DNA from: Cephalotus follicularis
Taxonomy: Eukaryota; Streptophyta; Magnoliopsida; Oxalidales; Cephalotaceae
Reading direction: 5' to 3'
DNA: 64,000 bases
Assembly (NCBI GenBank): GCA_001972305.1
Contig: BDDD01000978.1
Location: 165,036-229,035 of the forward strand
Position numbers and translations under genes: made by a program. The first letter of the stretch is position 1. The number at the start of each line of letters is the position of its first letter. A model generated the notes under the pieces. The model made no database searches. It worked only from the letters and a program-made list of their open reading frames with translations, and was not told the origin of the DNA. Shown one piece after another: positions 11,838 through 63,570 of this stretch.

Positions 11838-11992
11838 ACTATCGACGCCTTACTGTTAATAGTTGACTCTTTGGGGTTGATCAGTCAATGCTTTGTGTTG
11901 ATTAGTCGACACTTTTGTGCAATTGATTGACGCTAATGCATTAAAAACGGCTATGCGTCGACGCTTGAGGCATAACGCCTTAACCGTTGACG
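11838..11992. promoter_or_regulatory. E1 LTR1: decayed TCGA-palindrome array (type 1)
   Basis: Cores lie at 11842, 11863, 11885, 11906, 11927, 11958 and 11987. The first five are spaced 21, 22, 21 and 21 bp. Core tetramers read TCGA, TTGA, TCAA, TCGA, TTGA, TCGA and TTGA; the deviants are exactly what deamination of the central CpG would give on either strand. The best preserved site reads TGCGTCGACGCTTGA. The regulatory role is inference. Confidence 0.7.
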
Positions 11993-12239
11993 CCTAGTGC
12001 AAAGGAGTGCCGCCCAACGCCTTGTTTCGGCCAAACCTTACTGTTTTACATGATTTTCAAACCCAATGGGTTTATCTTCAAATGGATTTCATATGAAGAC
12101 TCCCTAAGGCCTTGTAGCCTATGGAAATCCTTGTTTAACACTTTTAGTCTCTAAAATTTACTTTCAAGCTAATCTTTAAAGAAAGTTCAATAAAAGGGTT
12201 TTATAAACGTTCAAAGGGTTTTACAGAAATGGTTTTCAA

Positions 12240-12412
12240 AAATGGTTAGGATAGTTCCATTTGGGACATCTGGACGAGGATATCCTAGTTGGACTTCCTC
12301 TCCATTGTTTTATGAATTTTGAAATGGATTTCAAAAATGGTTAGGATAGTTCCATTAGGACATCTGGATGCGGATATACTAGTTGGACTTCCTTTCCATT
12401 GGTTTATAAACT
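12240..12412. repeat. E1 LTR1: two-copy tandem duplication (~98 bp)
   Basis: The stretch beginning AATGGTTAGGATAGTTCC and ending with GTTGGACTTCC...CCATT occurs twice in direct orientation, with a few differences. Confidence 0.8.
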
Positions 12413-12727
12413 TCTATAGGGACGAACCAAATGATTATGGAAATGGTTACGGAAAACGGTTTTGAAAAACAGTTATGGGGAACGGTTATGAAAAACGGTT
12501 ATGAAAATGGTTTTATAAACTATTTTCACGAGTGTGGATCCTACTTCATCCTTTTTATTAGGTCCCTATCATTTCTACGGTACTACGGTTACGGGTTACA
12601 AGCATTATACGGTTATTATTGATGATTCTTATTGCTTGAGACCTAACGAGATAACCCATTCATAATTTTCATTTCTGTCATGAAGGTTATGAATGTTAGA
12701 CCACATCATACGAGGGAAATGGGAAAG

Positions 12728-12862
12728 GCTGGGACCATTGTGGACAAGCCTTACGGTTACGGTATTGACTGGGACCATTGTTGACAAGCCGAACGTATTG
12801 GTTGGGACCATTGTGGACAAGCCTAAATGTATGGGCTTTGACCATAGAGGACAAGCCCTATT
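12728..12862. repeat. E1 LTR1: 33-40 bp tandem repeats
   Basis: GGGACCATTGTGGACAAGCC recurs at 12731, 12771 (one change) and 12804, with a fourth degenerate copy near 12837. The spacer between copies varies, so this is a short imperfect minisatellite. The ORFs across it on both strands are by-products of the repeat. Confidence 0.85.
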
Positions 12863-13140
12863 GTATGCATGGTGTGGTCAGTGTTATCTTGATACCACGT
12901 GGCTACAAGCCAAGGGCGGGGTGTGTAGGTGGTGGTTGTACTATCTCGAGTCGGAGGGGCAGGATAGTCAGACCTTACAGATTGATTGTCCCCATTGATG
13001 GTTATGATTACTGATTGTTTTAGGAGTGTCAGCAGGCCTATGGCCTTTGATGAGATTAGAACTAGCCAAGTATACCCCACTTAGGGACGGTTGGTTTATC
13101 GAAGCTGTCCGCAATTGGCATTCATGCATATAACATGCCA

Positions 13141-13142
<2 letters not shown>

Positions 13143-13174
<32 letters not shown>
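13143..13174. repeat. TA microsatellite
   Basis: An uninterrupted run of TA dinucleotides about 32 bp long inside E1 LTR1. Confidence 0.97.
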
Positions 13175-19725: not shown

Positions 19726-19737
19726 TCTCCCTTTCCC

Positions 19738-19747: not shown

Positions 19748-21534
19748 TGTGCCTTCTAAAGATGAATAAGGAGTTGGTTTCTTCTGAGCATGGAGAGAAG
19801 AATTCGTGGGAGAAAAGAAGAGAAGGAGATCAAGTGAGGTAAGGAAATTCTATACCCATCTATGTCAAAGCTTCCTCTGTTTTGAATCAAAATTTTGTAG
19901 CAGATAGTTTAATTTATATCTTTCTGAGTTCTTGCTGAAATTTCAAATGGTTTAATGTTTTGAAAACCTCAAGATGTCTACTTTAACTCTTATGTTTTAT
20001 ACATCTCGCAATTCTATCGAATGCTTGATGAAAAGCTATGTTTTCTTCTACTGCTCAGGTTTCGTTTTCAAAAGGAAACTGCAATTTTAAAAATTCATTG
20101 TAGCTTCGGTTCTCAATGGAATTTTATGATTTTTGTCTCTGTAGATTCATTGAGATGTCTACTTTAAATTCTATGTTTTAAGTTTTCTATGAAAATGACT
20201 GCTTCTATACGAAATATGTATTTTAGAAAGGTTGTGCAAAACTGTTTTCTAAAGGTTTTTGAGTTAATTACTCAAAGTGATGAGAAATGTTTTATGATTG
20301 TGAAATGAATGTTTTTACAAAAGAAACCAGTTTTGGAAAGGTTTTATGAAATGATTTTGTGAATGCTTTGAGCTGATCACTCAAAGTATATGATGAATGA
20401 ACCGCCCTTGGATTGTGTTCCAAGGGGAATGGAGCGAAGGCTCAATGTTAATGGAACGAAGGCTCAATGTTAAGGGAGCGTAAAGTGCTCGCGGACATGC
20501 ATGTGATGTAAGGATAGTAATCGGGGAGTGCACAATGCCCCGGTGAAGCGGTGTAATTGGGTTCATTAAGGGTTTTTAAACCACAAGTTTTATGAAAGGT
20601 TCTGGTTATGACCAGACAATGGTTTTAAATGAAAGTATGTTTTCAAGTTTGGCTAAGATATATGCCACAAGAATGTATAAACGGAAAACGTTTTGATTGT
20701 TTTCAAGTATGCTGGTTATATATACCAGAAAATGTATGATTTTAGAAATGTTCTGGTTTTATAAAACTAGAAAATGATTTCCAAAGATATTTTGAAAAGT
20801 ATGATGTTGAAACGTTTTGATAAATATTATAAAAAATAACGGATTTCGATAACGTTTTATGACTATGATTCTTACTGGGCTCTTAAAAGCTCACTCCTCT
20901 CAATGTCTTGTTTTTCAAATAAATCTTCCAGGAAATGTTGAACGTGAAGTTGCGAGCTTTAGAGGAAGTTCGCAAAAGAAGAGTAAGGAAAGGAAGTATA
21001 TGCTATGAAGTTATGTTTTATGTCATATGTGTACGTTTGCCGTTGTGTAATGTTTTATGATAGACGGTGTATAGATGTTATAGTATAGAAACAAATGTTA
21101 TGGATTATGATGTTTTTATGTAAGATGATGATATCAAGAGTTATTGAACATACTTGAGTTTATGAGATGTTTCCGCTGTGTAAGGCTACATGTAAATGAT
21201 ATACGAAATGCAAGGGTATTAGGAATGACCATGATAATGAGAATATGACATTTTGAAATTAGTGTTTCAAAGATGTAAGCATATGTGATCCTGTGAAGTT
21301 ATTAAGTAATAATGTTAGGTTTTAAATCTAAGCCAAGATTTTATGATATGAAATGGATCGTTGAATGATTAAATAATTTGACGGTCAAAGGTTACACCCA
21401 CGTAACGCACCGATCTTCGGAGCTCGCTTTGAGCTTAAAGCGGACTCAGGTCGGGGGCGGTACACTAATGCATCCTAAGCGAAAACGGGATCGTCGGGAA
21501 TCAAAACCGTAAAAACTATCCAAACAGGACTCTA

Positions 21535-21730
21535 AAGCGTCGACGTTTATTCCTCAGGCGTCGACGCTTATGTGCCTTAAGCGTCGCCGTTTAGTCCCTT
21601 AGCGTCAGCGCTTTCAGTGTCTGGGCGTAAATACCTCCTCCCTTAGACGTCGACGTTTAGCGCAATTCAATATATAAAACACAGTTCACAGTATTAAGCG
21701 TCGATGGTCATTACTTAGGTGTCAACGGTT
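21535..21730. promoter_or_regulatory. E3 left LTR: distal type-1 palindrome array
   Basis: Cores lie at 21540, 21561, 21584, 21605, 21628, 21650, 21701 and 21722, spaced 21, 23, 21, 23, 22, then 21 for the last pair. Examples are AAAGCGTCGACGTTTA and CAGGCGTCGACGCTTAT. Counting from the E3 LTR start at 22776, the cluster is about 1.05-1.24 kb in, the same place as the distal clusters of E4, C and E5. Confidence 0.78.
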
Positions 21731-22484
21731 TCAAGCAGGGGTCGTCTTCTACCTCACAACATGACTAAACAGTGACATTTCCATGCATATAACATGCATT
21801 CCAACAGGTATAAAGCCCATAAAACGGCCATGCAATATCATAGGACACAACTAGTACAAGGTAGCATCATTTTAGTGACTAAAAACGGATCATCAAGCTA
21901 TGAAATTCATGCATAAACATCACTGAACATTCACCAAGTATTGAACACAAATTACAATTATGGCTTCCACTACCTCTGGCCTCAAGTTAGAAGCCGAAAG
22001 TCCACCTCTTTTAGTACTCCCACAGGTCACTTGAATCCCCAGGCATGGCTTGAAAGCTCCCTGGTTCATCCCAGCAGTTGATGTGCAAGCTCCAAGCTCC
22101 CCTTTGTTCAACAATGGTGGTTTCTCTCTCTTTTCTCCTTTCTCAGATGTTTCAGTGAGAAGGAGGACAAAGTGGGAGGTGTTTTATGGTGGTAACACGC
22201 CTCTCACCTTTCTCTATTTCGTTGCATGCATCTCCCAGGCTCCTTTTCCCATCTTCCCCCTTTCCCAGGTTTTGTTCTTTTCTTCTTCACTTTCTGTCAT
22301 TGCAGGTGGAGGTGAAACTAACCATTTCCATGTTAAAGGCTATGGACACATTTTGGTGCATGCCTGAAGCCTTGTTGTATGGTTAACACGTCCTAAAATG
22401 CGTGTGAGGCACCTGAAGAGTGGCTTGAACATACCTTCGTGCGCCACGTCTTTCTGCAGTTATATGTATGCAGAACACGCCACC

Positions 22485-22590
22485 AAGCGTCGGCGTTTAC
22501 ATGCAGGCGTCGGCGCTTATGTGTTGAGTTTAAACGCGCGTTTCAACGGCTTAAGCGTCGACGCTATAAATCCAGGCGTCAGCGCTTTAA
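22485..22590. promoter_or_regulatory. E3 left LTR: proximal type-1 palindrome cluster
   Basis: Cores lie at 22490, 22510, 22558 and 22579, in two pairs spaced 20 and 21 bp. Sites include AAGCGTCGGCGTTT and TTAAGCGTCGACGCTAT. It is about 190-290 bp inside the LTR, matching the proximal cluster position in E4. Confidence 0.75.
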
Positions 22591-22776
22591 CCTCAAAACT
22601 GCACCGTTTAACTAAATTACCCTTTTAACACTCCTCTAACAATTGGATTCCAAATTCTACATCATCAAAGTTTGGGAAAACATCATCAAATTCGGAAAAT
22701 CCATCTTTTAATAATTCCACAAATAAAGTACATTTACATTGTGAAATTACAACACATGAATTTCCTGGGCGTTACA

Positions 22777-27707: not shown

Positions 27708-27859
27708 TGTAACGCCCGGTATTTTCCTGAATGTAATATTTCGATTTATGATGTAATCTTAAACTTGAATAAATAAGAATGTTGAGATTTTGAACTCAAA
27801 AGGTGCTTACAAACCCTAGTTATGGTTTTGGAAATGGAATATGTGTGTCAAACGCTTAA

Positions 27860-28035
27860 AACGACGCTGTTTTGGGGTAAAGACATCGACGTATTTTGAA
27901 AGACGTCGACGCCTATGGGAACCAAGGTACACATAAATGCATGGGCATGCACGTCGACAATGAGAGAAGGCATCGACACCTTCTTACAAAAAGGAAAAAG
28001 ACATCGACGTCTAGGGAAAGACGTCGATGCCTTTG
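27860..28035. promoter_or_regulatory. E4 5' LTR: proximal type-2 palindrome cluster
   Basis: Cores lie at 27886 and 27906 (20 bp), 27954 and 27973 (19 bp), and 28004 and 28024 (20 bp), with a weaker ACGACGC about 20 bp before the first. Sites read AAAGACATCGACGT, AAAGACGTCGACGCC and ATGCACGTCGACAATG. The paired arrangement at about two helical turns recurs in every array of this window. Confidence 0.78.
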
Positions 28036-28557
28036 TAAAGAACGTCTGTCACGTTCTTCACTGACAGAGTAACATGCAATCGGATCTTTGGGGGCTTTAC
28101 CAGACGCCTTTACAAGTGCATTGTGACGTGTTGATTCTGCTGGTGTGTTGCCAGGAACGCTCAAAACGTGCCCCTCACATGGAACATGCAAAGGAAGATA
28201 CGATCCTCACATGCAACCTGCAAAAAAGAAAGAAGGGAAGAAAACAAAAGGAAAAATGCATAATCTGGGAAAGGGGGGAGAGAGCACGAGAGTGCCCATT
28301 AAATGTAAGGAGAAGAATATTGGTGGGGAAGCCACCTGCATAAGAACAACCCTCCCCACTTCTCTCTCTTATTTTAAAACACCAAAGGAAAAAGAGGAAA
28401 GAAAACAGTGAGTGTGAGTGCCACCATTGTTGAGCTTGGATTGAGAAAGAGATTGGAGCTCGTGGGTAGCCGTTGCTGAGAGGATATTGGAGCTGCTGGT
28501 GGCCAGAACTTGGGAACTCAAAGAGGTGGATTTTCCAGTTCCTAACTTGGAGCAATA

Positions 28558-28570
28558 AGGTAGGGGAAAG
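28558..28570 (+). promoter_or_regulatory. Conserved AAG|GTAGGGG, possible leader splice donor of E4
   Basis: AAGGTAGGGGAAAG occurs about 850 bp into the LTR, after a conserved GAGGTGGA...CCTAACTTGG block. Equivalent sites are at 46592 in E5, 43420 in C and 39640 (minus) in E3. A matching acceptor lies just before gag in E3 and E5 but is GG instead of AG in E4 (about 30696). The intron is a prediction. Confidence 0.4.
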
Positions 28571-28789
28571 TGATGGATTTATACATGCATTTTGGGTTTT
28601 AAGTTAATGAATAACATGGTGAATTGCATGTTAATGGTTGAATTGTAATTTTGGACTTGTTGTGGTGTTACTGTGATATACGGAGTTAACTATGCATGTA
28701 CGATTTCACGAATATGTGAATTTGTTATGTAAAGGATGGATTTGATAATGGCTTGGTGTGTTAAAACTGCGAAGAAGAGGTTCTTGGTT

Positions 28790-29310
28790 GGAAAGACATC
28801 GACGTCTACATGAAGATGTCGATGCCTTCGTGTGAAAACGTGAAAGACCTCGATGGTCTTGTAAAGATATCGACGCCTTTTCTGGGCTTTATATAACAAT
28901 AACGTTATGCCTTCGTGTGTGGATGTGAAAGACATCAACGTCTTTTGGGAGACGTCGACGCCTTTTCTGGGTATTACAGAACAGTAGTGTTTACTGTTAT
29001 TGGTAAACTGCCCTTGGAATTACCTGTTTTATGCATGAAATGATGTTCTGGTTATATCCCTGTTAACCAGTAGCATGCCTTACACGTTGAGAGAGTGAGA
29101 TTCATTTACATGAAGGATTAAAAGGCCGGATTCTACCCTCCAGAATCAAGACTCGCGAACTGATACCTTCTGATATCATAAAGACATCGACGTCTTCGTA
29201 AAGACATCGACGTCTTTGGTCCGAAAACGCCTGGGAATATTTTTACATGGGATCGACGCCTTAGTGTAAAGACGTCGATGCCTTAAGGATTGACATCGAC
29301 GCCTTCTCCC
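28790..29310. promoter_or_regulatory. E4 5' LTR: distal type-2 palindrome clusters
   Basis: Cores lie at 28799/28819, 28850/28870, 28935/28955, 29187/29207 (all 20 bp apart) and 29253/29275/29296 (22 and 21 bp). Sites include AAAGACATCGACGTCTT and GAGACGTCGACGCCTTTT. The third pair is reduced to one site in the 3' LTR by loss of one 20-bp unit. Confidence 0.8.
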
Positions 29311-30595
29311 CTGATCAGTGGAATTTCACTTGAATGGGACCCGCTAGACCCGAAAGGACTCTAGGAACGAACCTAGATGTATTCTGAGCATATGTTGCAT
29401 TTTTACTGTGATTTGCATTATGGTTGCTTTCTAAAAGTGTTAACCATTTTGAAAAGCTTGTATGATTATAATAATCATTTTGTACGAAAATGTATATTTA
29501 TATATTTTCGAAACGATTGGGGAAGTATTTCCAAGGATGGAGAAATGTTTTAAAGGATTGATTATGAAACTAAATGTTTTATGCAAAAATGTATATTTGT
29601 CAACATATGAATATATATTTTTTGAAATAATTGGGGAAGTATTTCCAAGGATAGAGAAATGTATTGTTTTAAGTTTTATAACTTATCACAACTTGTAAAC
29701 GGAATAATATATTTTAAACAAATATGTTTGATCAAGTAATTACATTGCATTGCTTGACTTGTACTGTGCAATGCTTGTGCCTGTTGATTATTAGTCGCCG
29801 TGCTAATAACGTGTTGATTACTTAGCCACTGTGCTAGTAACTTGCTGTTGGTTTAGCCACCGTGCTAAACAACTTACGGAGGACTTGCTCCAAAACCGTT
29901 CGCAAACGGGGATGGAGTAAGAGTGCATGACGTTGGGGCCAGGAGGTGGCGACGGTCATGACGATTGGTTTGTCTGGTTCCTTTTTGGGAACATATTTAC
30001 TGCTTGTGTTGATATAACTTATGAGTTATACTTGTACTGTGAGCATGCATATATTTTTATATGTACATACGGAGGTATACTTACTGTGAAAATTACATGT
30101 CATGGTTCATCATAATGCATTCATTCATGATACTCATTATCATATGACTCGAACTGTATTTATGGGTTTATCGACTTAGCCGAGTGAGGACAAAGGCTAA
30201 CCCCTACTGTAACAGATTGATGGAATGGACATAATATGGAGCATGCATGGAGACTTAAAGAGAAGACTTGTTATCTCTCCTATTTATGTAATTGGGTTAT
30301 TGAACATTAATCATGTTATTCGGATTTTATAACAAAGGATATTTTGTTATCTCGTACTTTATTATTTCACGCTCCGTTTTGGGCGATCGACAGTTATGTT
30401 TGGGTTGTTATAACTTGTTGGGCATCACGTAGTATGGGATGCGTGATGCGTATTTAAATTCGTCTCATTTATGTTGTTGCTTCCGCTTCCGATGGTTTTT
30501 ATTTATTGGGAATTTTGCATGAGCTGGATTATCTTGTGTTGATTACCTTACCACTTTATGAGTTGTCTTGTCGTGGAAACGGGGGCGTGACAACG

Positions 30596-30607
30596 TGGTA
30601 TCAGAGC
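30596..30607 (+). other. E4: primer-binding site
   Basis: TGGTATCAGAGC lies 3 bases after the LTR end, complementary to initiator tRNA-Met. Confidence 0.95.
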
Positions 30608-30703
30608 ATATTCCATATATGCTTAGCTAGGATATTTTCCTTGGCAATCAATAAATTGTTTTCCTAAAGTCGTGACTAGCAGTCGTCCTTCTTATGGGAA
30701 CAA

Positions 30704-35203: not shown

Positions 35204-35234
35204 TATTGTGTTAATTTCAGGGTCAAAATTTCTT

Positions 35235-35248
35235 GAAGGAGGGGTGGA
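35235..35248 (+). other. E4: polypurine tract
   Basis: GAAGGAGGGGTGGA ends directly at the 3' LTR start. Confidence 0.93.
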
Positions 35249-44298: not shown

Positions 44299-44333
<35 letters not shown>

Positions 44334-45320
44334 ATGACTGGGGAAAGTATTTTCCAAAGAAGGTGAAATGTTTAAAGGATTGGTTACACAATCGAACTGT
44401 ATTGTTTTAAGTTTTATAACTTATCACAACCTGAGAATGGAGTAATATATTTTAAACAAATATATTTGATCAAGTAATTATATTTTATTGCTTGATTTGT
44501 ATTGTACGGTGTTTGTTGTTGTTGATTATTAGCCGCTGTGCTAGTAACTTGTTGATTGTTTAGCCGTCGTGCTAAGCAACATGTACGGAGGACTTGCCTC
44601 AAATCGTTCGCAAACGGGGATGGGGTAAGAGTGCATGACGTTGGGGCCAGGAGGTGGCAACGGTCGTGATGTCTCGTTTTTCTGGTTCCTTTTGGGACAT
44701 ACTTACTGCTTGTGTTGATGTAGCCTTATGAGGTTATACCTGTACTGTGAACATGCATATATTTTACATATGTATATACTGCGATATAAATACTGTACTG
44801 CATCATGATGCATTCATTCATGATACTCATTATCATATATCTCAAACTTCATTTATGAGTTTATTCACTTAGCCGAGTGAGGACAAAGGCTAATCCCCTA
44901 CTGTAACAGATTGATGGAGTGGGATTTGATATGGATCACGCAAGGAGACTTAAGGAGAAGACTAAATTGTTTCTCTATGATTATGTTATCTGGATTAATG
45001 AACAATGATTTGTTATTTGGATTATTGTAACGTGGATTTTATATCTGTCATGTATTGATGGATACCGTGGTTTATTTCATTTCGTACTGTATTATCACGC
45101 TCCGTTTATGGGCGATTGACGATGATGTTGGGTTTTTATATAAACTTTTTGGGTATCACGTAGTATGGGATGCGTGATACATATTTAAATTCAGCTTATT
45201 TCATGTTATTGCTTCCGCTATTAAAAGTTTTTGTTTATACATAAAATCGCATAAGCTGAATTATGTTGGTTGATTGCTTTATCGCTTTAATGTTGTCTTC
45301 TTGGAAAACGAGGTGTGACA
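42546..45320 (+). mobile_element. Solo LTR C (2.78 kb)
   Basis: It starts TGTAACTCTTAGG and ends GAGGTGTGACA. It is related to the E4 LTR: both have TGTAATATT 24 bp in, the purine-rich stretch, AGGTAGGGGAAAGTGATG near 43420, the TTAGCCGYYGTGCTA repeats near 44530 and the CTTAGCCGAGTGAGGACAAA block near 44870. No primer site or purine tract follows. The flanking 5-mers are CTAAC (42541-42545) and CTAAG (45321-45325), a target duplication with one mismatch. Confidence 0.85.
42750..44096. promoter_or_regulatory. Solo LTR C: palindrome clusters (mixed type 1/2)
   Basis: Clusters lie at 42750-42900 (AACGCGTCGATG, AGGCGTCGACGCCTA, AAAGACATCGACGTCTA), 43670-43750 (mostly decayed, such as AAAGACGTTGATGCC) and 43965-44095 (AAGACGTCGACGCCCA, AAGCGTCGACGCTTA). 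C mixes type-2 sites with at least one perfect type-1 site, AAGCGTCGACGCTT at 44074. Confidence 0.72.
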
Positions 45321-45847: not shown

Positions 45848-45999
45848 TGTAACGCCTGGGATTTTCGCACTTTGTAATATTTGAATTCCAAATGTAATCT
45901 TGTTATTAAATTAATGAGAAAGATGAATTTCCTGACTAATATTTTTGATTCGCAAATCAAATGAAAACAGTTATAAGTATCATTGTTGAAATATTGACG

Positions 46000-46100
46000 G
46001 GGACAGTCGATTGGTGCAATAGACCAGCCGACTGGTGGTCTGTCGAGCCACCTGGAAACCACAGCCACGAGGACAGCCGACTGTTGGGGGAGAACAGCCG
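46000..46100. promoter_or_regulatory. E5 5' LTR: proximal type-3 palindrome cluster
   Basis: CAGTCGATTGG, CAGCCGACTGG, CTGTCGAGCC, CAGCCGACTGTTG and CAGCCGGTTGG cluster about 160-250 bp into the LTR, the same place as the proximal clusters of E3 and E4 but with a different palindrome. Confidence 0.72.
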
Positions 46101-46926
46101 GTTGGATTATGCTCTGTTTTATTTGCATGTGACGAAATCACATGCAACGACTAACAAGGAGGAGGGGTGTGCCATCTGTTCGTCATGCCGCCAATGTAGA
46201 GGGGAGAGTGAACACCTGTGCGCCCTGCAGGTCATGGGACAGGAAAAATCAGTCCTGTGAGTGTGTGCTTGTAGATATGAGAGGTGTATGGCATTTAGTT
46301 CTATGAAAAAACGGGTTGGAGAAGAGGGAGAGAGAACCACCTACATAAAACGCTCCCCTCTTCACCTCTCCTGCCCAGTGCATGCAAGGAAAGAAAAACC
46401 GGTGAGAATTACAGAGAAAAACAGTGAGGTATCTTGAGAGAAAGAGAGAGAGTTTCTCAAATTGTTGAACCAAGAGGAGTTGGACGTGATGGGTTGGAGC
46501 TACTATACTTGGACTTGAAGCGCCTGGGAGCTCAAAACGTCACTATTGTAACACAAAGAGGTGGACTTATAGATTCCTAACTTGGAATATAAAGGTAGGG
46601 GAAGTTATGTTGTATTTTGAGCTCAAGATTACTAAATGTTATGCAACCGATTACCTGTCTGTATGAGCTGTGACGTTCAGTTGATATGCCATGGTTACTG
46701 CTGGTTTTTCATATGCTATGCTCACTGTTGAGAATTATTGAGTTTATGTATATGCATGTTGAGTTTTATCTTGGTATTAAATTGCTGGATAAGATGCATG
46801 CTACTGTTGTGTTCTATGAATTGTGAGGACTGATTAATGGTATTCCGCCTTGAGAATATATATGGATGCTTGCAATGATCCGTTTAAGTGACATATATTG
46901 GATTGCATGTAACTGGTTTGCAAGAA

Positions 46927-47092
46927 CAGTCGACTATCAAAGGAAGGCAGCCGACTACTAAAGCGAAACAGTCGACTGTTGAAGGATAACAGCCGACTGC
47001 ATGGTGAACAAGTCGACTGGTAGAAGGAACCAGCCGACTACTCATGTACTTATTACCAGAACAGCCTGCTGGTGAAGGATCCAGTCGACTGC
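46927..47092. promoter_or_regulatory. E5 5' LTR: distal type-3 palindrome array
   Basis: Sites start at 46927, 46948, 46969, 46990, 47010 and 47031, spaced 21, 21, 21, 20 and 21 bp, then 47062 and 47082 (20 bp). They alternate between CAGTCGACT and CAGCCGACT. This is the clearest example of the two-helical-turn spacing. It sits about 1.08-1.25 kb into the LTR. Confidence 0.85.
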
Positions 47093-48364
47093 CAAGTTGT
47101 TGTTTGATTCTCTCTCACTTAAAACGATCCGCGATAATCCCTATTTCGCTTAGGATGCATTCCAGCATTTCTATGCATTGCATATGTATTGTTTACTGCC
47201 TGTTTATTGACTGATTATAAGTCGTTTATGATTTCTAGATTACTATGTTAATTTAGAAATGCATATGTGAAACTAAAAATGACTATTTTGAGTACAAAAT
47301 AGTTATTCGATAATAACATATTTTTGAATAACTGAGAATTTGATTTCCACCCACTGAACCGTTTAAAAAGTATTTTCTACTATTGAAAATACATATTTCG
47401 AATGTTTATGGCTTTTTAAAACATTGTGAAATGAACTGCCTGTTATTGATCTAACGATCACCACTGTACTGTTTACTGTGACTATTCACTGTTGCTCTGT
47501 GAATTTACTGTGTTTGTGCTTGAGCCATTAGTTGCATGGCGGAGACTGCCAGTGCCCGCTAGTGGTAGGGTTGACCTATGTGCCAGGAGTTGGCTGGGTA
47601 ACTAACTGTACTATATTATTGTTTTGCTTGGTTGCCTAGAGTACGGACCGAAGTGGGAGTGTAACGTGGGGCTAGGAGTTGGCGGCGTTACACATACTGC
47701 CTGCCTATTGTGGTCCCCTTGTGGACTTAGTGTACTATTTACTGGTCATGTTCAGACACGACTATGCCTGTTTGATGTAGCCCTGGCCGGGCTACTACTG
47801 TACTGTTGTTGCATACATATATTTTTTCATATATGTCCCTACTTATATATAAACTGGTATTTTCTACTACACTGCATCATCTACGTATACATTTCATGAC
47901 ATCCATGTAATGTTGATCCCAAACTACCTTTATGACTTAGCCGAGTGAGGACAAAACCTAACCCCCTACTTTATAGATTGATGCAGTGGACCGGTTGGAC
48001 TAGCTTGGATGAAGAACAAGCCTTTATGTTATTGTTGTTGGCTTTATATTCTTCTGGATTGTAATAAACTTGTTTTGTTTTAAGGACTACTGATGTACCA
48101 TACTTTTGGTTTTGTTTAACGATCAGTAATGTATTATGGATCACGCTCCGTTTTATGGGCTTTTGACTATGACAGACTTGTATTGAGTAGCGTGCAGTAT
48201 GGGATGCACGTTACTCGTTTTTTCAGCTTATGAGTTTTAATGCTTCCGCAAATGATATCTTGTTTAAAAGTTTAAATTTTATGGTATTTGCATGAGCTGA
48301 ATCTTATTGTTAATTGCCTTTATCACTTTTATGTGTGTCTACTTGAAACCGGGGTGTAACAGAG

Positions 48365-52734: not shown

Positions 52735-52849
52735 TGTTGACGATTTAGTCCCAATCCTTGTTTAGATGATAACATATTTGCATTTGACAAGTTTACTTGA
52801 TGTGCAAGAAATTACAAAGTTCAATACCAAGGCAAAACTCATCTGCAGA

Positions 52850-53385
52850 AGAAGACATCGACCCTTAAGAAATGACATCGACGTCCGTACAGAAAGACAT
52901 CGATCCATTTAAAGAAGACATCGACGTCTTTAGTGCAAGATCAAATCACAATGAAGACATCGTCCTTCCAGTAATGACATCGACGTCCGTACAGAAAGAC
53001 ATCGATCTCTTTCAAGAAGACATCGACGTCTTTAGTAACAGAAGCTATTGTTCAAATTTGCAATTGAAGACATCGATCCCTACATGCAAAGACATCGACA
53101 TCAGTACAAAAGACATCGACGCCTTTACATAGACATCGACGCCTTTCTAAAGCTACCTGCATTTCCCAGAAAAGACATCGACCCCTACAGAAGAAGTCGA
53201 TGTGATGCTCAAAGTTTCAATACCTGGACATTTCCCAGAAATGGCATCGACGCCTTTAAAAAGACATCAACGTCTTTTTAAAAGGTTTGACCCGGGAAAC
53301 ATGGAACGACTATTACGCGCACTTTCAACGGCTATCAACTAACAAAGACATCGACGCCTTTACAAAGGCATCGACGTCTTTATGT
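52850..53385. promoter_or_regulatory. E6 5' LTR: type-2 palindrome array
   Basis: GACATCG starts at 52854, 52874, 52896, 52917 (spacing 20, 22, 21), repeats as 52956, 52976, 52998, 53019 (again 20, 22, 21; a 102-bp duplication), then 53069, 53091, 53112, 53132 (22, 21, 20). Further TCGA cores lie at 53178/53197, 53247/53267 and 53351/53371. Sites grade from AAAGACATCGACGCCTTT to decayed forms such as AAAGACATCAACGTCTTT. It occupies the U3 upstream of the TATA box. Confidence 0.85.
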
Positions 53386-53473
53386 CAGCAGAAGACAAAA
53401 TTCAAAGATTGCAACTACACATTTTTAAATCAAAAGCTTCCATGATTTACGCAACGACTACAAATCTTTTCTG

Positions 53474-53484
53474 CCTATAAAAGG
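53474..53484 (+). promoter_or_regulatory. E6 5' LTR: TATA box
   Basis: CCTATAAAAGG at 53474-53484, about 90 bp downstream of the last palindrome pair. The 3' LTR has the same CCTATAAAAGG at 63324. Transcription would start near 53510. Confidence 0.7.
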
Positions 53485-53727
53485 AAGATTGAAACCTCAG
53501 AAGAAGACACTGAACTACATCAATTCAACATCAATTACACAAAATCAAAGAGAGATATCATATTCTAGCAATCTATTGCCAAAAAGCTCAAAGTGCACAA
53601 TAGTGTTCTAAATAGCTTCTAAGCTTTATCCTTTGAGATTTTCTGAGTGTTTCATATTGTGAGCTGTATTATTCATATCAACCTATTTGAGAGGTTAGAG
53701 ATTACAAAGATACTTATAGATTTGAAT

Positions 53728-54821
53728 ATGTCTAACAAGGAAAGCATGTCCATCTCAAAGCCTCCATTTTTCGATGGAAACAAATATAGTCATTGGAAGG
53801 CAAAGATGACTATATTTATTCAAGCTCTTGACTTTAACTTATGGGACATCATCATTGACGGCCCGGAACTTCCTCACATCATCTCTCAAGAAGGAATCAA
53901 AACTCTCAAACCGAGAAGCTCATATACGGATGATGATCGCAAGAAGGTACAATTAAATGCTAAAGCAAAACATGTTATTATATGTGCTTTAAATTCAAAT
54001 GAATTCAATAGAGTATCATCTTGTGCTACCGCAAAAGAGTTGTGGGATCGATTAGAGGTTACCTACGAAGGAACCAACCAACCAACCAAGTCAAGGATGC
54101 AAAAATAAATATGCTTGTAAGAGAATACGAAATGTTCTCTATGAAGGAAAATGAAAACATTTCCGGTATGTTTGTTAGATTTACAAATATTATTAACTCT
54201 TTACAATCTTTGAATAAATGCTACACTAATAGTGAGATGGTAAGAAAGATACTTAGGTGTCTTCCCAAAAGTTGGATGCCTAAGGTTACGGCTATAGAGG
54301 AAGCAAAAGACCTCAACACCTTGCCGCCTGAAGAACTTCTTGGATCACTCATGACACATGAAATGACCATCAAAAACCATGAGGATGATGAAGAACAAGA
54401 TAAAAAGAAAAAGAAAGTCATTGCATTCAAGTCTTCTACAACGGACTCAAGTGAAGAAGATAGTGACGATGAAATGGCTTTGATCACAAGAAGATTCAAG
54501 AAATATCTATCAAAGAAAAAGTTTGGGAACAAACACTTCAAGAAGACATTCCCATCAAAATCCGAAACAAAGAAGGAAGAAATAATTTGTTTCCAATGCA
54601 ATAAACTCGGACATTACAAGAGTGAATGTCCAAGATTGAAGAAAGCAAAAGACACTATCAAAAAGAAGAAGGCTATGCTTGCTACATGGTCGGATAGTGA
54701 TGAATCAAGCTCCGAAGAAGATGAAGACCAAGAAGTAGCACAAATAGCATTAATGGCAATCAACGATAGTGATAAAGATGAAGATGAAGATGAAGATGAA
54801 GATGAGAATGAGGTAAGTTAA
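53728..54821 (+). pseudogene. gag: E6: gag (N-terminal part, first zinc knuckle)
   Basis: The likely start at 53728 gives MSNKESMSISKPPFFDGNKYS, a copia-type gag opening (PPxFDGxxYxxWK). The capsid-like part includes KVQLNAKAKHVIICAL and AKELWDRLEVTYEGT. An 8-bp expansion of a CCAA repeat near 54075-54091 shifts the frame; the correct continuation runs in the frame open from 54021 (INMLVREYEMFSM, LRCLPKSW). A Lys/Glu-rich stretch and the knuckle CFQCNKLGHYKSEC (54588-54629) follow, then an acidic tail with DEDEDEDEDENE. A TAA at 54819-54821 closes the frame. Confidence 0.9.
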
Positions 54822-57593: not shown

Positions 57594-57686
57594 TGTTGAC
57601 GATTTAGTCCCAATCCTTGTTTTGATGATAACATATTTGCATTTGACAAGTTTACTTGATGTGCAAGAAATTACAAAATTCAATAC
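57594..57686 (+). repeat. E6: 3' LTR, first piece (before E7)
   Basis: TGTTGACGATTTAGTCCC matches 52735 onward. E7 cuts it after AATAC (57682-57686), and it resumes at 62678 after the repeated AATAC. Confidence 0.95.
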
Positions 57687-58230
57687 TGTTGGAAGTCTAG
57701 AGGGGGGTGAATAGACTAATAAAAATTTATCTAGCAAATATAACACATTAAAATTAATTACTCAAACACACAAAGCGGAAAGTAAAAAGTTTAGGGTTTA
57801 GAGATTGCAAACGGTTATATAGTGGTTCGGCAAACCGCCTACGTCCACTCCCCAAGGCCTCCCCTTGAGTATTTCACTAGTATGCCCCAATCCGGGCTTG
57901 AAACTCCAACCGAGCTCCAACAAACTTTCGCTCCAACCAAGCGAATTATACTTTGCTCCAACAGAGCAATACAAGAGACAACCTCTCTTGTATGAGTGAA
58001 ATAAATGTTTGAATGATTACAAATTCGTAGTGAATTTGTTTACAATGAAGCTCACTATGAACAAAGCTTAGAAATGTGTATGTAAGGTAAAAGTAAAGCT
58101 TTGTAATGTGTAGGATTGCTTGAATTTGATCTCTTTTGATTGTGTGAATGCTTTGTATTGTTCTTGAGATAGCTTGAGAGAATGTGTACTTTGAAAGCTT
58201 GATCACTTGTGCAAGAAGTCCAATTTTCCT

Positions 58231-58236
58231 CTTATA
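58231..58236 (-). promoter_or_regulatory. E7 LTR: TATA-like box
   Basis: The minus strand reads AACTATAAGAGG about 45 bp after the last palindrome (58281). The same sequence is at 61973-61978 in the other LTR. Confidence 0.5.
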
Positions 58237-58280
58237 GTTGAGCCTCCAACGGATCTATTTTTAACTGTCTGATACAAATC

Positions 58281-58790
58281 CAGTCGGCTGGATTTGGATG
58301 GCAGTCAGCTGGTTTGATGGCGCGTATATTTGAATATAGCCGTTGGGAGTGGGCAGTCGGCTGGATTCTGTAGGCAGTCGGCTCGATGTCTGGGCAGTCG
58401 ACTGATGCCCTGCTTCAGTCGGCTGTTGAGGCTAATTTGGAAGTTACAAAACCTATTGTATGAATTTGCACAATTGAAGGCAGTCAGCTGGACCCCTGTG
58501 GCAGTCGACTGGACCCCCTGGCAGTCGACTGGTCCCCTGCTACAGTCGGCTGGATTGGGTGTGAAATGTTACAGAAGCTTCTGCCTGATTTGTACCCCAT
58601 GGCAGTCGACTAATGCCCTGTGGCAGTCGACTGGAATTGCCTGGCAGTCGAATGGACCCCTGTGTCAGTCGACTGGTGTGTTGTTTCTGGAGATTCTGGG
58701 TTTAGGTTGAAGATGCAGTCGACTACATGACTTTGGAAGTCGACTCCTAGCCTTGGCAGTCGACTGGATTGCCCTCCAGTCGGCTGGAAT
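58281..58790. promoter_or_regulatory. E7 left LTR: type-3 palindrome array in quartets
   Basis: CAGTCG starts at 58281, 58302; 58354, 58375, 58395, 58416; 58481, 58502, 58522, 58543; 58603, 58624, 58644, 58666; and 58716, 58737, 58757, 58777. Steps inside groups are 20-22 bp. Sites alternate CAGTCGACTGG with CAGTCGGCTGG and some CAGTCAGCTGG. Groups of four are separated by 50-65 bp. The array fills U3 upstream of the TATA-like box. Confidence 0.88.
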
Positions 58791-58950
58791 TGCCTGTACC
58801 TGCATAAACATCCTTGGCACAACTTTGGACACAAGATTAAGTGAGTATATGCATTTATAATTTAAAGAATTATGCATACAAGTAATTTATGTTTGTTAAT
58901 CATCAAAATAACTCATGGTAAACAATTAATCGGGGTGGCAAAGGCCAACA

Positions 58951-58970
58951 ATCTCCCCCTTTTTGATGAT
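58951..58970 (-). other. E7: polypurine tract
   Basis: The minus strand reads ATCAAAAAGGGGGAGAT directly before the left LTR, the same tract as in E6. Weaker tracts of the same kind recur at about 59190, 59229 and 59260 in the 3' non-coding region (58971-59576), which holds nothing else recognisable. Confidence 0.9.
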
Positions 58971-59576: not shown

Positions 59577-60733
59577 TCAGGATGGAGGAGGGTGCTGTGG
59601 GAAAGTGTTTTGAAGCCACTGGAGGATGTCAGCTTGTCCTTGTCGAAGATCGGCCTGTCCTTGAAGAATGTTTGCTTGCCCCTCACGAAATTGATGCATT
59701 TCACCTTTGATGAACTCCATATCAGCTTGGGCAATATCCATTCTGGCCATAAGTGAATCAAGAGTAGGCCTGCTGCTGCTACTCCCCGATACAGCACTCG
59801 GACGCATCTCATACTGTTGTGGATCATCCTCATCATCATCATCATCATCATCCCCAGCCCTAACAGGCTCTTGCTCTCTTGCTTTCTCTCTACCTCTCCC
59901 TCTCACCTTGACCCACTCTCCTTCCTCAAAAGCAAGGTTTAATTGTCTAAGTCCCGCCTTATTCACCAAATGCTTATGGGAAGGCTTAACACTTTGCTCA
60001 TCATCCGGGATATCTATGTTAAAAGAAGCTAGGACAGTCAAAATGATCCTACTAAGAAGCATAGGATATGGAGTGTGATTTGGCCTAGACAATAAGTGGT
60101 TTACAATAAGATAGGGAAGGTTAATTTGGGTTCCATTCTTGACACAAGCGATGAATTTAAGGTCGCGCTCGGAGGGGAGGGTGTGTGATCCTTGTTTTGG
60201 AAGAAAAGTGTTGGTAACAAGGAGTAGAATAATCCTAGAGGCAATAGGTAAGTGACTACTAGTCATATTCAAAAGTGGATTCACATTTGGTTGCTCAAGA
60301 CAAATCCCTAGTGCCTCAGTTTTTCCTATGTCATGAAAATTAGTAATTCCCTCATTGGGAATTCCTAATGTTTCGGCAATTAGGTCGGGAGTAATACAAA
60401 TAGGAGTGCCTAGTATAAACGAATTGGCAATGCAAGTGGTGGAGGTTGCTAAATTGGCATAAAAAATTTTCACAAGCCTAGGGTATATGGTATGTGATGA
60501 GCAAATGTAGTCAAGCCAACCCATAGCATCAAACCAAGTAATTACCACAGCAAATTACTCACTAATACATCCCTACTCAGCCATTTCTCACAATGTAACT
60601 TAACTGAACTAAAATAGGAATTATACCTCATCTCTTTCTCCTTGGAGAGAAAGAGGTTGTTGTCATAATCTAACTCCTCTTGAGAGCCTCTTGCAAGCCT
60701 TGAAGAACTTCCTCTTTGTCTTTTAGGACCCAT
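59577..60733 (-). pseudogene. E7: third ORF downstream of pol (function unknown)
   Basis: The ORF opens at 60733 with MGPKRQRGSSSRLARGS, a basic, nuclear-signal-like start, and runs 63 codons to a frameshift near 60545; the rest is open for 323 codons from 60548 to 59577. The central part contains YPRLVKIFYANLA and DLIAETLGIPNEGI, which resemble the domain called putative plant transposon protein, found after pol in SIRE-like elements (from memory, unverified). A basic GRGREKAREQE stretch, an acidic run of Asp residues near 59845, and a Gln-rich C-terminus with repeated QGQAD units follow. No signal peptide or membrane segment is seen, so it does not look like an envelope protein. A palindrome quartet lies 117-190 bp upstream. 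Confidence 0.75.
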
Positions 60734-60849
60734 AGATGAATGCAGGTTCGAATATTTAGAGAGAAATGTGATTTTGGCATTTTAAAGTTTGAGAGAAGTG
60801 AAGAGGGCAGGTGACAAATCGGGTTTAAAACCCTGTCTGTCGAAATTCC

Positions 60850-60919
60850 AGTCGACTGGCCACTAATGGCAGTCGACTGGCTGGCAAGGCAGTCGACTGG
60901 AAAGCAATCCAGTCGGCTG
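60850..60919. promoter_or_regulatory. Palindrome quartet upstream of the E7 third ORF
   Basis: Four type-3 sites start at 60850, 60870, 60890 (CAGTCGACTGG) and 60910 (CAGTCGGCTG), spaced exactly 20 bp. They are in the interior of E7, between the RNase H end (61139) and the third ORF (60733), outside any LTR. Their placement upstream of an ORF suggests a control site. Confidence 0.85.
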
Positions 60920-61138
60920 TTTTCTGCAGAAATGAGAATTGCAAAAAAATTGCCAAACCAATTGAATATGCAATCCTTTGGTACACTATTATGGACTAAT
61001 AGCAACCAAGGTAAGTGAGCTAAATATATGTTATTGAGTTTGAAAACTCAAAGTTTAAATGCAAGATGACTTTTGAAAACATGTTTCACTCAAATCAATC
61101 AAAAATCAATTAAGCATCACAAATACACATAAAATGAG

Positions 61139-61900
61139 TTAGGAAGGATTTTGCATACCTAGCTCTCTCCGTAAAGTGCAGAAACGTTCGTTGTCCAGTG
61201 GCTTTGTGAATATATCTGCAACTTGATTCAAAGTGTCAATATATTCAAGAAATATATCTCCCTTTTCAACATGATCTCTAAGGAAATGATGTCTAATTTC
61301 AATGTGTTTAGACTTAGAGTGTTGAACGGGATTTCTACTCAAATTAATAGCACTAGAATTATCACATTTAATACACACATTGCTAATGCTAATTCCGAAA
61401 TCACAAAGTTGTTGCTTAAGCCACAATACTTGAGCACAACAACTTCCCGCCGCAACATATTCGGCTTCGGTAGTGTATAGAGCTACACTATTTTGTTTCT
61501 TGGAAAACCAAGATACTAAAGAGTTACCTAGAAATTGGCAAGTGCCACTAGTACTCTTTCAATCCAATTTGCAACCACCATAGTCGGCATCGGAATAAGC
61601 GTGCAAGTTAAATAACGAATCATGTGAATAAAACAATCCTAATAGTGGTGTATATGCAAGATATCTAAAAATTTGCTTAACCGCGGTCAAGTGAGATTCT
61701 CTAGGTGAAGATTGATATCTAGCACAAAGACATACACTAAACATTATATCCGATCTACTTGCGGTTAAGTAAAGAAGAGATCCTATCATGCTTCTATATA
61801 GTTTTTGATCTACCTCTTTACCATTCTGATCCTTGTCAAGTTTCGGTGCAATGCTCATTGGTGTCTTGCAAGGTTTTGAGTGCTCCATTCCAAATCTTAT
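61139..61900 (-). pseudogene. pol: E7: RT connection and RNase H
   Basis: From the deletion breakpoint (about 61898) the minus strand codes the end of copia pol: GMEHSKPCKTPM, YRSMIGSLLYLTASRSDIMF, SPRESHLTAVKQIFRYL and YSDADYGGCKLD, then a TGA near 61559 where CGA is expected (KLDRKSTSGT), and on through TEAEYVAA, WLKQQL, DNSSAINLSRNPVQHSKSKHIEIRHHFLRD and IFTKPL to the stop near 61139. The first codons of the open frame come from LTR sequence joined by the deletion. RNase H residues are recognisable and otherwise intact. Confidence 0.93.
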
Positions 61901-62672
61901 TGTTCTTGAGATAGCTTGAGAGAATGTGTACTTTGAAAGCTTGATCACTTGTGCAAGAAGTCCAATTTTCCTCTTATAGTTGAGCCTCCAACGGATCTAT
62001 TTTTAATTGTCTGATACAAATCCAGTCGGCTGGATTTGGACGGCAGTCAGCTGGTTTGATGGCGCGTATATTTGAATATAGTCGTTGGGAGTGGGCAGTC
62101 GGCTGGATTCTGTAGGCAGTCGACTGATGCCCTGCTTCAGTCGGTTGTTGAGGCTAATTTGGAAGTTACAAAACCTACTGTATGAATTTGCACAATTGAA
62201 GGCAGTCGGCTGGACCCCTGTGGCAGTCGACTGGAACCCCTGGCAGTCGACTGGTCCCCTGCTACAGTCGGCTGGATTGGGTGTGAAATGTTACAGAAGC
62301 TTCTGCCTGATTTGTACCCCATGGAAGTCGACTAATGCCCTGTGGCAGTCGACTGGAATTGCCTGGCCGTCGACTGGACCCCTGTGTCAGTCAACTGGTG
62401 TGCTGTTTCTGCAGATTCTGGGTTTAGGTTGAAGATGCAGTCGACTACATGACTTTGGAAGTCGACTCCTAGCCTTGGCAGTCGACTGGATTGCCCTCCA
62501 GTCGGCTGGAATTGCCTGTACCTGCATAAACATCCTTGGCACAACTTTGGACACAAGATTAAGTGAGTATATGCATTTATAATTTAAAGAATTATGCATA
62601 CAAGTAATTTATGTTTGTTAATCATCAAAATAACTCATGGTAAACAATTAATCGGGGTGGCAAAGGCCAACA
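61898..62672 (-). repeat. E7: 5' LTR remnant (right copy)
   Basis: 775 bp match 58156-58950. It lacks a 20-bp unit (CAGTCGGCTCGATGTCTGGG) present at 58375 in the left copy, an exact one-repeat loss. Palindromes run from about 62023 to 62510. The 469 bp that would adjoin the primer site are deleted. Confidence 0.92.
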
Positions 62673-62677
62673 AATAC

Positions 62678-63570
62678 CAAGGCAAAACTCATCTGCAGAA
62701 GAAGACATCGACCCTTAAGAAATGACATCCACGTCCGTACAGAAAGACATCGATCCCTTTAAAGAAGACATCGACGTCTTTAGTGCAAGATCAAATTACA
62801 ATGAAGACATCGTCCTTCCAGTAATGACATCGACGTCCGTACAGAAAGACATCGATCCCTTTCAAGAAGACATCGACGTCTTTAGTAACAGAAGCTATTG
62901 TTCAAATTTGCAATTGAAGACATGGATCCCTACATGCAAAGACATCGACGTCAGTACAAAAGACATCGACGCCTTTACATAGACATCGACGCCTTTCTAG
63001 AGCTACCTGCATTTCCCAGAAAAGACATCGACCCCTACAGAAGAAGTCGATGTGATGCTCAAAGTTTCAATACCTGGACATTTCCCAAACATGACATCGA
63101 CGCCTTTAAAAAGACATCAACGTCTTTTTAAAAGGTTTGACCCGGGAAACATGGAACGGCTAGTACGCGCACTTTCAACGGCTATCAACTAACAAAGACG
63201 TCGACGCCTTTACAAAGACATCGACGTCTTTATGTCAGCAGAAGACAAAATTCAAAGATTGCAACTACACATTTTTAAATCAAAAGCTTCCATGATTTAT
63301 GCAACGGCTACAAATCTTTTCTACCTATAAAAGGAAGATTGAAACCTCAGAAGAAGACACTGAACTACATTAATTCAACATCAATTACACAACATCAAAG
63401 AGAGATATCATATTCAAGCAATCTATTGCCAAAAAGCTCAAAGTGCACAATAGTGTTCCAAATAGCTTCTAAGCTTTATCCTTTGAGATTTTCTGAGTGT
63501 TTCATATTGTGAGCTGTATTATTCATATCAACCTATTTGAGAGTTGTATATTGCAACAATGTTTATTTCA
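62678..63570 (+). repeat. E6: 3' LTR, second piece (after E7)
   Basis: It matches 52829-53691 with few changes, including the palindrome array (62704-63235) and TATA box (63326), then extends about 30 bp beyond the preserved 5' LTR to TTTATTTCA. ATCTC follows. Confidence 0.94.

What the first reader, a model, noticed from the sequence alone, without database searches (positions are those of the whole stretch)
11838..63235. TCGA-centred palindrome arrays with about 21-bp spacing in the LTRs of nine nested retroelements
Short palindromes centred on TCGA (commonly GTCGAC) occur in groups in E1, A, B, E3, E4, C, E5, E6 and E7. Core-to-core steps that I counted: E1 21,22,21,21; B 21,21,21; E3 21,23,21,23,22; E4 pairs of 20; E5 21,21,21,20,21; E6 20,22,21; E7 21,20,21 and 20,20,20. 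Linkers between sites diverge more than the palindromes. A step of about 21 bp is two turns of B-DNA, which would put bound proteins on the same face. I know of no described LTR feature of this kind; the nearest parallel is clustered short motifs bound by TE-encoded anti-silencing proteins (VANC of VANDAL elements). Alternatives are a decaying 21-bp minisatellite or stem-loops in the RNA.
Basis: partly seen in the sequence, partly recalled or inferred. Interest (0 to 1): 0.92.

Follow-up and report, generated by a model that had tools for sequence, protein, structure and literature searches.

The report
Phased palindromic enhancer-like arrays in retrotransposons
Many jumping genes of what appears to be a carnivorous plant carry, in their control regions, rows of the same short near-symmetric DNA site about 21 letters apart; the layout resembles switches known from one group of plant retroelements, but here unrelated groups share the same two broad site types.

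Summary
TCGA palindromes with arms of 4 bp or more exceed shuffles fivefold, and TCGA-TCGA distances peak at 20-22 bp. Of 52 phased sites, 48 lie in LTRs and four just upstream of an element's extra ORF. Sites outlast linkers in 12 of 12 directions of 6 LTR pairs. The genome, inferred to be Cephalotus follicularis, holds 176,266 GTCGAC pairs 19-23 bp apart. That nothing like it is known is wrong: 13 Sireviruses carry 8-32 palindromic repeated motifs upstream of the TATA box and, in many, of env (PMC2829016). E6 and E7 look like such elements. New here: arrays also in Ty3 elements; two broad site types, each found in Ty1 and Ty3; one related Ty3 pair with different types across an unalignable U3; looser helical periodicity near 10.4 bp. 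Phased variants fit RYCGAC, listed for barley CBF1/CBF2. Best reading: U3 enhancer arrays for host DNA-binding proteins, DREB/CBF-like factors being candidates. Minisatellite and RNA-hairpin readings fit less well; transfer of array modules between elements remains possible. Binding was not tested.

The parts
27708..30592 (+). 5' LTR of Ty3 element A (TGTAACGCCCG...GGGGGCGTGACA; primer site TGGTATCAGAG at 30596); sites 27888-28026 and 29189-29298, type AAAGACRTCGAYGTCTTT
30593..35248 (+). internal region of A: five ORFs of 150 aa or more, with gag, protease, RT, RNase H, integrase and a chromodomain-like match below Pfam's cut-off; no phased sites
35249..38110 (+). 3' LTR of A, sites at about 35437-35565 and further on
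38111..40439 (-). larger part of the 5' LTR of Ty3 element B (A inserted into it; the rest is 27478-27706); sites 39208-39369, type GCGTCGACGC
21465..22776 (-). part of the 3' LTR of B (rest 17553-18786, with an insertion between); sites 21541-21651
42601..45320 (+). LTR C, diverged relative of the A LTR, left end approximate; sites 42756-42873 and 43992-44081
45907..48361 (+). 5' LTR of Ty3 element E4, left end approximate (true start probably somewhat upstream; 3' LTR begins at 63716); sites 46008-46099 and 46931-47086, type CAGYCGACTG
52735..53730 (+). 5' LTR of Sirevirus-like Ty1/copia element E7, right end approximate; sites 52860-53138 and 53353-53373, type AAAGACATCGACGTCTTT; TATA box CTATAAAAG at about 53475
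62673..63607 (+). right part of the 3' LTR of E7 (left part about 57594-57686), similar array; right end approximate
57687..58950 (-). 3' LTR of Sirevirus-like element E6, inserted in the E7 3' LTR (flanking repeat AATAC); sites 58285-58781, type CAGYCGACTG, upstream of CTATAAGAG
61898..62672 (-). truncated 5' LTR of E6, sites 62027-62503
60853..60914 (-). quartet of CAGYCGACTG sites upstream of the E6 ORF
59577..60554 (-). E6 open frame with a PF20167 match, between pol remnants and the 3' LTR, where Sireviruses have the env-like gene; stop-to-stop coordinates; homology to env not shown

Best explanation
The arrays are enhancer-like cis-regulatory modules in the U3 part of the LTRs: repeated near-symmetric sites for sequence-specific DNA-binding proteins, spaced about two helical turns apart so that bound proteins face the same side. 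They are the same kind of thing as the palindromic repeated motifs of Sireviruses, here in two broad site types and shared by Ty1 Sirevirus-like and Ty3 elements. The binder is more likely a host factor than one encoded by each element, because Ty3 element A shows only gag-pol-like ORFs. The degeneracy of phased sites matches RYCGAC, which makes DREB/CBF-type AP2 activators the leading but unproven candidates (about 0.3). Shown: real arrays, spacing, LTR location, conservation, site types present in both superfamilies. Inferred: protein binding, activation, identity of the binder.
For: Excess and 20-22 bp peak; 45,110 triplets genome-wide against 166 for the reversed pattern and 176,266 pairs at 19-23 bp against 1,828. 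Location upstream of TATA in E6 and E7 and upstream of the E6 ORF. Sites more conserved than linkers; adjacent linkers dissimilar. Site types in both superfamilies: CAGYCGACTG in E6, E4 and L013; AAAGACRTCGAYGTCTTT in E7 and A, and beside Ty3 coding in L009. B and E4 are 61-84% identical per 100 columns downstream of LTR position about 1240 but 29-63% (forced) over positions about 100-1240, with sites at the same place and of different type. Phased one-mismatch versions of GTCGAC after redundancy filtering, n=55: ATCGAC 22, GCCGAC 20, central CpG decay 8, others 5. RYCGAC 8.71/kb in LTRs against 1.12/kb internal, both strands counted so GTCGAC counts twice, both LTR copies of some elements included; 11 other hexamer patterns 0.21-1.59/kb in the same LTRs. 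RYCGAC and GTCGAC are listed as barley CBF1/CBF2 and HvCBF2 sites (PMC4222965, one passage). DREB1D sites are associated with plant LTRs (PMC11656987, passages).
Against: No binding, expression or methylation data. Units inside an array may share ancestry, so the RYCGAC spectrum is not a set of independent events, and with the strictest filter (n=33) central CpG decay is 7, against 24 RYCGAC-type. In E7 the conserved half is AAGACATCGA and at least three of its sites are ATCGAT, not RYCGAC. The extended arms are not explained by a CBF core. Gaps of 27-28 bp are not whole turns. The strict site set gave periods of 9.6-10.0 bp. RNA folding potential is also above shuffles. In 5'/3' LTR pairs sites are not clearly better kept than the rest.
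Confidence: 0.62

Rival explanations
1. Decaying 21-bp minisatellites: slipped-strand duplication made tandem units, and the palindromes are simply what is left.
For: Tandem Repeats Finder reports many 20-22 bp arrays in these LTRs, mostly 64-95% matches; within several families the asymmetric variants point one way, as units of common descent would; the E7 LTR holds a 102-bp duplication.
Against: Adjacent CAGYCGACTG linkers 0.31 identical (range 0.09-0.73, n=12, not all independent) against 0.27 for different loci; CpG-rich sites outlast linkers in 12 of 12 directions; by eye from the looser list, gaps at odd multiples of about 10.4 bp are as common as at even ones (30 and 30 in 5 windows of 4 bp each; 32 in 11 off-phase windows).
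Confidence: 0.15
2. RNA hairpins: adjacent palindromes pair in the transcript, serving the element or feeding small-RNA production.
For: Sense RNA of the arrays folds better than shuffles (E6 z -2.07, 2 of 100 shuffles as good; E7 z -3.47, 0 of 100). In maize an excess of small RNAs maps to Sirevirus palindrome clusters (PMC10760457 passage citing Bousios 2016; the 2016 paper is not held).
Against: Asymmetric variants that break a pair in the sense RNA outnumber those leaving G-U: GCCGAC 12 to GTCGGC 2, ATCGAC 26 to GTCGAT 9 in 7 LTRs, counted anywhere in the LTR; but L013 goes the other way, B and C are balanced, and units may share ancestry. Any palindrome folds, and the hairpin reading does not require helical spacing.
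Confidence: 0.15
3. Shared by transfer: array modules have moved between Ty1 and Ty3 LTRs by recombination, so the common site types reflect common descent rather than convergence on one binder.
For: Forward alignment of E6 and E4 arrays scores 31 against 15 reversed, and only 2 of 200 linker-shuffled versions reach it; E6/L013 8 of 200 and E4/L013 7 of 200.
Against: For E7/A forward and reverse scores are nearly equal (32/31, 36/30); E6 against the other E4 cluster 16/15 and E7/B 13/13 show nothing. This is about origin and does not exclude the binding function.
Confidence: 0.3
4. Anti-silencing arrays bound by a protein encoded by the elements themselves (VANC-like), possibly the E6 PF20167 protein.
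For: E6 keeps an extra ORF with a quartet upstream of it; the 120 relatives listed of 316 found are all named as Cephalotus proteins.
Against: Element A shows only gag-pol-like ORFs of 150 aa or more; other Ty3 copies were not examined for extra genes. The ORF lies where Sireviruses have env-like genes. Its fold could not be predicted (tool off).
Confidence: 0.06

Closest known systems
Sirevirus repeated motifs (RM boxes), Bousios et al. 2010, PMC2829016 (abstract, section 9 and passages read)
   Same: Many palindromic boxes per LTR, mostly in the upper half, upstream of a cTATA(A/T)A(T/A)Ag-type TATA box, with further copies upstream of the env-like gene; two of the 13 listed RMs are TCGA-centred (Vitis CGGTCGACCG, Tnd-1 ACAATCGATTGT).
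   Different: Reported as absent from classic retrotransposons and, but for Tnd-1, with a CGG-CCG core; here also in Ty3 elements, with a TCGA core and regular spacing near 21 bp; I saw no spacing analysis in what I read.
Tnt1 BII boxes and other U3 repeat modules (PMC3316501 passages; Vernhettes 1998 and Araujo 2001 as cited in PMC10760457)
   Same: U3 boxes bound by defence-induced factors; U3 differing between subfamilies (from cited titles). That BII boxes are repeated palindromes is partly recalled.
   Different: Sequence not compared; sharing between Ty1 and Ty3 not seen in what I read.
CRT/DRE sites of DREB/CBF AP2 factors (GTCGAC as CRTDREHVCBF2, RYCGAC as barley CBF1/CBF2 site, in a table of PMC4222965)
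   Same: GTCGAC, ATCGAC and GCCGAC all fit RYCGAC.
   Different: Listed as short promoter sites; extended 10- and 18-bp symmetry and phased arrays are not part of the definition as shown there.
VANC-binding motif arrays of VANDAL transposons (recalled, no call)
   Same: Clustered short motifs in mobile elements.
   Different: VANC is element-encoded; no such gene found in element A.

Membership tests
Sirevirus repeated motif (RM) | Host element is a Sirevirus | tested here: inconclusive
   E6 and E7: several GGGGGAG(A) tracts before the 3' LTR, and a C-rich LTR end in E6; no RT phylogeny made. A, B and E4: not met, their coding regions are Ty3-type.
Sirevirus repeated motif (RM) | Dyad-symmetric box, at least 8 copies per element | tested here: met
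   E6 3' LTR: 15 sites by the loose rule; E7 LTR: only 6 by that rule, but 13 TCGA cores in register, 11 from 52860 to 53138 and 2 at 53353-53373, many with imperfect arms.
Sirevirus repeated motif (RM) | Located upstream of the LTR TATA box, extra copies upstream of the env-like gene | tested here: met
   E7 and E6 TATA-like boxes; quartet 60853-60914 upstream of the PF20167 ORF. That this ORF is an env homologue was not shown.
Sirevirus repeated motif (RM) | CGG-CCG core | tested here: not met
   Core is TCGA, variants CCGA/TCGG; the paper lists Tnd-1 as an exception.
Sirevirus repeated motif (RM) | RM cluster defines a CpG island | not tested
   No island prediction run.
CRT/DRE (DREB/CBF) site | Matches RYCGAC | tested here: met
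   42 of 55 phased one-mismatch variants, plus GTCGAC itself; 24 of 33 with the strictest filter; ATCGAT sites of E7 do not match.
CRT/DRE (DREB/CBF) site | Bound by DREB/CBF; cold or drought responsive | not testable with these tools
   No binding or expression data.
VANC-type anti-silencing array | Element encodes the binding protein | tested here: not met
   For element A only: five ORFs of 150 aa or more, all gag-pol-like; shorter frames and other elements not examined.
21-bp minisatellite | Adjacent units alike along their whole length | tested here: not met
   CAGYCGACTG type only: adjacent linkers 0.31, n=12, against 0.27 for different loci.

The most novel reading that the evidence does not exclude
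Unrelated retrotransposon superfamilies in one genome have converged on, or exchanged, two common regulatory codes: each code is a near-symmetric site repeated in helical register, read by a shared host protein family, and elements switch codes by replacing U3 while keeping the rest. This would be a genome-wide shared regulatory grammar for retrotransposon activation or escape from silencing.
Probability: 0.3. Interest if true: 0.78.

Novelty: new variant of a known kind. Interest (0 to 1): 0.56.

Why it matters
If right, the question of which host factor drives many of the retrotransposons in this genome becomes directly testable from two short sites, and it would show that Ty1 and Ty3 elements can share and swap the same regulatory code. 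It would also extend the Sirevirus repeated-motif concept, reported as Sirevirus-specific, and offer a spacing rule that can be tested with synthetic reporters.

Tried and rejected
Chance: rejected. Pure 21-bp minisatellite: see rivals. The first variant count had an inoperative redundancy filter and was replaced: 70 unfiltered (ATCGAC 32, GCCGAC 25, central CpG decay 8, others 5), 55 at 0.70 (22, 20, 8, 5), 33 at 0.60 (13, 11, 7, 2). A universal sense-strand direction of RYCGAC, suggested, was given up because L013 points the other way and B and C are balanced. In one search the linker shuffle destroyed part of the 18-bp sites and is not a fair null for E7/A. Lower CpG loss inside sites after insertion: p=0.01 one way, 0.31 the other, not claimed; A/C comparison 0.014 and 0.19. 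One search counted BLAST pieces, including shifted matches within one LTR, and is superseded. In one search many of the 41-43 bp gaps hold a variant site in the middle (two 21-bp steps), so that set is not one of strictly consecutive gaps. Genome-wide counts of GCCGAC and GTTGAC neighbours, of 14-18 bp gaps and of 57-87 bp gaps: not completed. Structure of the PF20167 protein: tool switched off. Bousios 2016: not held.
Full report
Source. The window is G000:C978:165036-229035 of a 1.577-Gb assembly of 9,746 contigs. The open frame 59577-60554 (-) is 93% identical to a protein named as Cephalotus follicularis; the 120 relatives listed (of 316 found) all bear that name, and two contig lengths attached to them, 390,113 and 1,263,020, equal those of contigs C500 and C10. 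I take the plant to be Cephalotus follicularis; this is an inference.

Observation. Of 280 TCGA, 66 have palindromic arms of at least 4 bp and 35 of at least 5; 100 shuffles that keep dinucleotides in 1-kb blocks give 12.9 (max 24) and 3.3 (max 9). TCGA-TCGA distances of 19, 20, 21 and 22 bp occur 5, 19, 21 and 8 times against 0.59-0.85 each expected. Twenty 10-kb pieces from other contigs show the same peak, 11, 18, 20, 18. Genome-wide, GTCGAC triplets with 19-23 bp steps number 45,110 against 166 for the pattern read backwards, pairs 19-23 bp apart 176,266 against 1,828, pairs 26-56 bp apart 191,692 against 3,742. The reversed pattern is a different hexamer, so this control is rough, and copies of one family count many times.

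Anatomy. Self-comparison, ends and domains give a nest. A (27708-38110, +) is a Ty3 element with 2.9-kb LTRs and a chromodomain-like match below Pfam's cut-off, inserted into the 5' LTR of B, a Ty3 element on the minus strand. C is an LTR related to A's. E4 is a Ty3 element (5' LTR about 45907-48361; 3' LTR from 63716). E7 (Ty1/copia, from 52735) lies inside E4, and E6 (minus strand, 57687-62672, flanked by AATAC) inside the E7 3' LTR. E6 and E7 have several GGGGGAG(A) tracts before the 3' LTR, and E6 a C-rich LTR end, both Sirevirus features in PMC2829016; no tree was made. Phased sites: 48 in the array-bearing LTRs (20,374 bp), 4 in internal regions (20,651 bp), 0 in the other classes (22,954 bp); three TCGA cores at 21-bp steps near 19.0 kb, in an unclassified insertion, fail the rule used. 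In E7 the array ends about 100 bp before CTATAAAAG; in E6 it lies upstream of CTATAAGAG, and a further quartet lies upstream of the PF20167 ORF.

Site types. TCGA cores with a TCGA neighbour 19-22 bp away divide, by the letters next to the core, into a CAGTCGACTG group (56, 38 after removing near-duplicates), a group whose majority profile is AAAGACGTCGACGTCTTT, outer CpGs often CA/TG, which also holds GCGTCGACGC (167, 115 after removal), and 12 others. CAGYCGACTG occurs in E6 (Ty1), E4 (Ty3) and L013, where Ty3 coding lies between 96%-identical LTRs with an adjacent primer site; AAAGACRTCGAYGTCTTT occurs in E7 (Ty1) and A (Ty3), and beside Ty3 coding in L009, whose LTRs were not delimited. 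B and E4 align at 61-84% per 100 columns downstream of LTR position about 1240; upstream the forced alignment is 29-63% except at the very start, with sites at 1072-1233 and 1025-1180 of different type.

Selection. In six pairs of diverged relatives sites are more conserved than linkers and than the remainder in both directions, 12 of 12, Fisher p from 2e-7 to 0.044 against linkers plus rest; several pairs share an LTR, so they are not independent. Within 5'/3' LTR pairs sites are not clearly better kept, as expected if selection acted on active copies before insertion. Adjacent CAGYCGACTG linkers are nearly as unlike as unrelated ones (0.31 against 0.27). Alignment of arrays between superfamilies is nearly as good reversed as forward for E7/A, but mostly forward for E6/E4, with 2 of 200 linker-shuffled versions as good, so transfer of a module is possible there.

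Spacing grammar. Consecutive gaps between sites, redundancy-filtered, in 294 kb: 19-22 bp dominate. For 26-140 bp gaps the looser site set gives a best period of 10.5 bp (n=104, R=0.315, 0 of 2000 jittered sets as strong) and 10.4 bp for 26-80 bp (n=73, R=0.409, 0 of 2000); the strict set gives 9.6 (edge of the scan; n=75, 4 of 2000) and 10.0 bp (n=51, 2 of 2000). In a further set from contig C1, 54 copied gaps reduced to 39, R at 10.4 bp is 0.36, the best period lies at the edge of the scan (11.4) and 19 of 2000 nulls reach it; 27-28 bp gaps (5) do not fit whole turns, and some 41-43 bp gaps hold a variant site in the middle. I conclude that 21 and 42 bp are firm and helical phasing of longer gaps is likely but loose.

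What reads the sites. At positions 19-22 bp from a GTCGAC, hexamers one step away from GTCGAC are ATCGAC 22, GCCGAC 20, GTTGAC/GTCAAC 8, others 5 (n=55; background 3.5 per 4 offsets; with a stricter filter 13, 11, 7, 2). Central CpG transitions, the change expected to be commonest in methylated repeats (general knowledge), are the minority, while the commonest changes are those allowed by RYCGAC. PMC4222965 lists RYCGAC as the site of barley CBF1 and CBF2 and GTCGAC as the preferred site of HvCBF2 (passage). Units within an array may be related, E7 keeps AAGACATCGA rather than RYCGAC, and the extended arms are unexplained, so I give a DREB/CBF-like binder about 0.3.

Known or new. PMC2829016 (abstract, section 9 and passages read) describes palindromic repeated motifs in 13 Sireviruses, upstream of TATA and, where an env-like gene is present, mostly upstream of it, calls them Sirevirus-specific and absent from classic elements, and found no common binding factor. 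PMC10760457 (passages) reports for maize that structure is concentrated in copia LTRs, with no obvious peak in Ty3 elements. The E6 and E7 arrays are therefore new members of a known kind; the Ty3 arrays, the sharing of two site types across superfamilies and the 21-bp grammar are the new part as far as I could see. Searches whose listings showed no report of this: (20 of 484 papers listed; 10 of 21; 15 of 15; 10 of 125; 2 of 2; 10 of 24), in an open-access library that lacks most subscription papers, including Bousios 2016; most listed papers were seen as titles and abstract beginnings only.

Noticed in passing
window 59577-60554 (-): PF20167 open frame in a degraded Sirevirus-like element, where such elements have env-like genes; 316 relatives found, the 120 listed all named as Cephalotus proteins, which suggests a large family with open copies. 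Function unknown.
   Followed up: partly
whole window: Besides GTCGAC and GACGTC, the RY-type hexamers ATGCAT (72 against 24.6) and GCATGC (21 against 10.2) exceed shuffles; ATGCAT is also above a Markov expectation in the 200-kb sample (123 against 83).
   Followed up: no
1640-5112 and 6961-10979: Pair of very long repeats (97% identical) around a 1.85-kb centre, apparently a non-autonomous LTR element; no phased sites.
   Followed up: no
19345-19728: Nine-copy 42-bp tandem repeat inside the insertion in the B LTR, overlapping a 179-aa minus-strand open frame.
   Followed up: no
18990-19032: Three TCGA cores at 21-bp steps in the unclassified insertion within the B LTR, with imperfect arms.
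   Followed up: no
52851-53036 and 62701-62886: 102-bp duplication inside the E7 array: arrays also grow by copying several sites at once.
   Followed up: no
B 38111-40439 and E4 about 45907-48361: Two related Ty3 elements whose LTRs are unalignable over about 1.1 kb of U3 but similar downstream, a sign of U3 replacement or very fast U3 change.
   Followed up: partly
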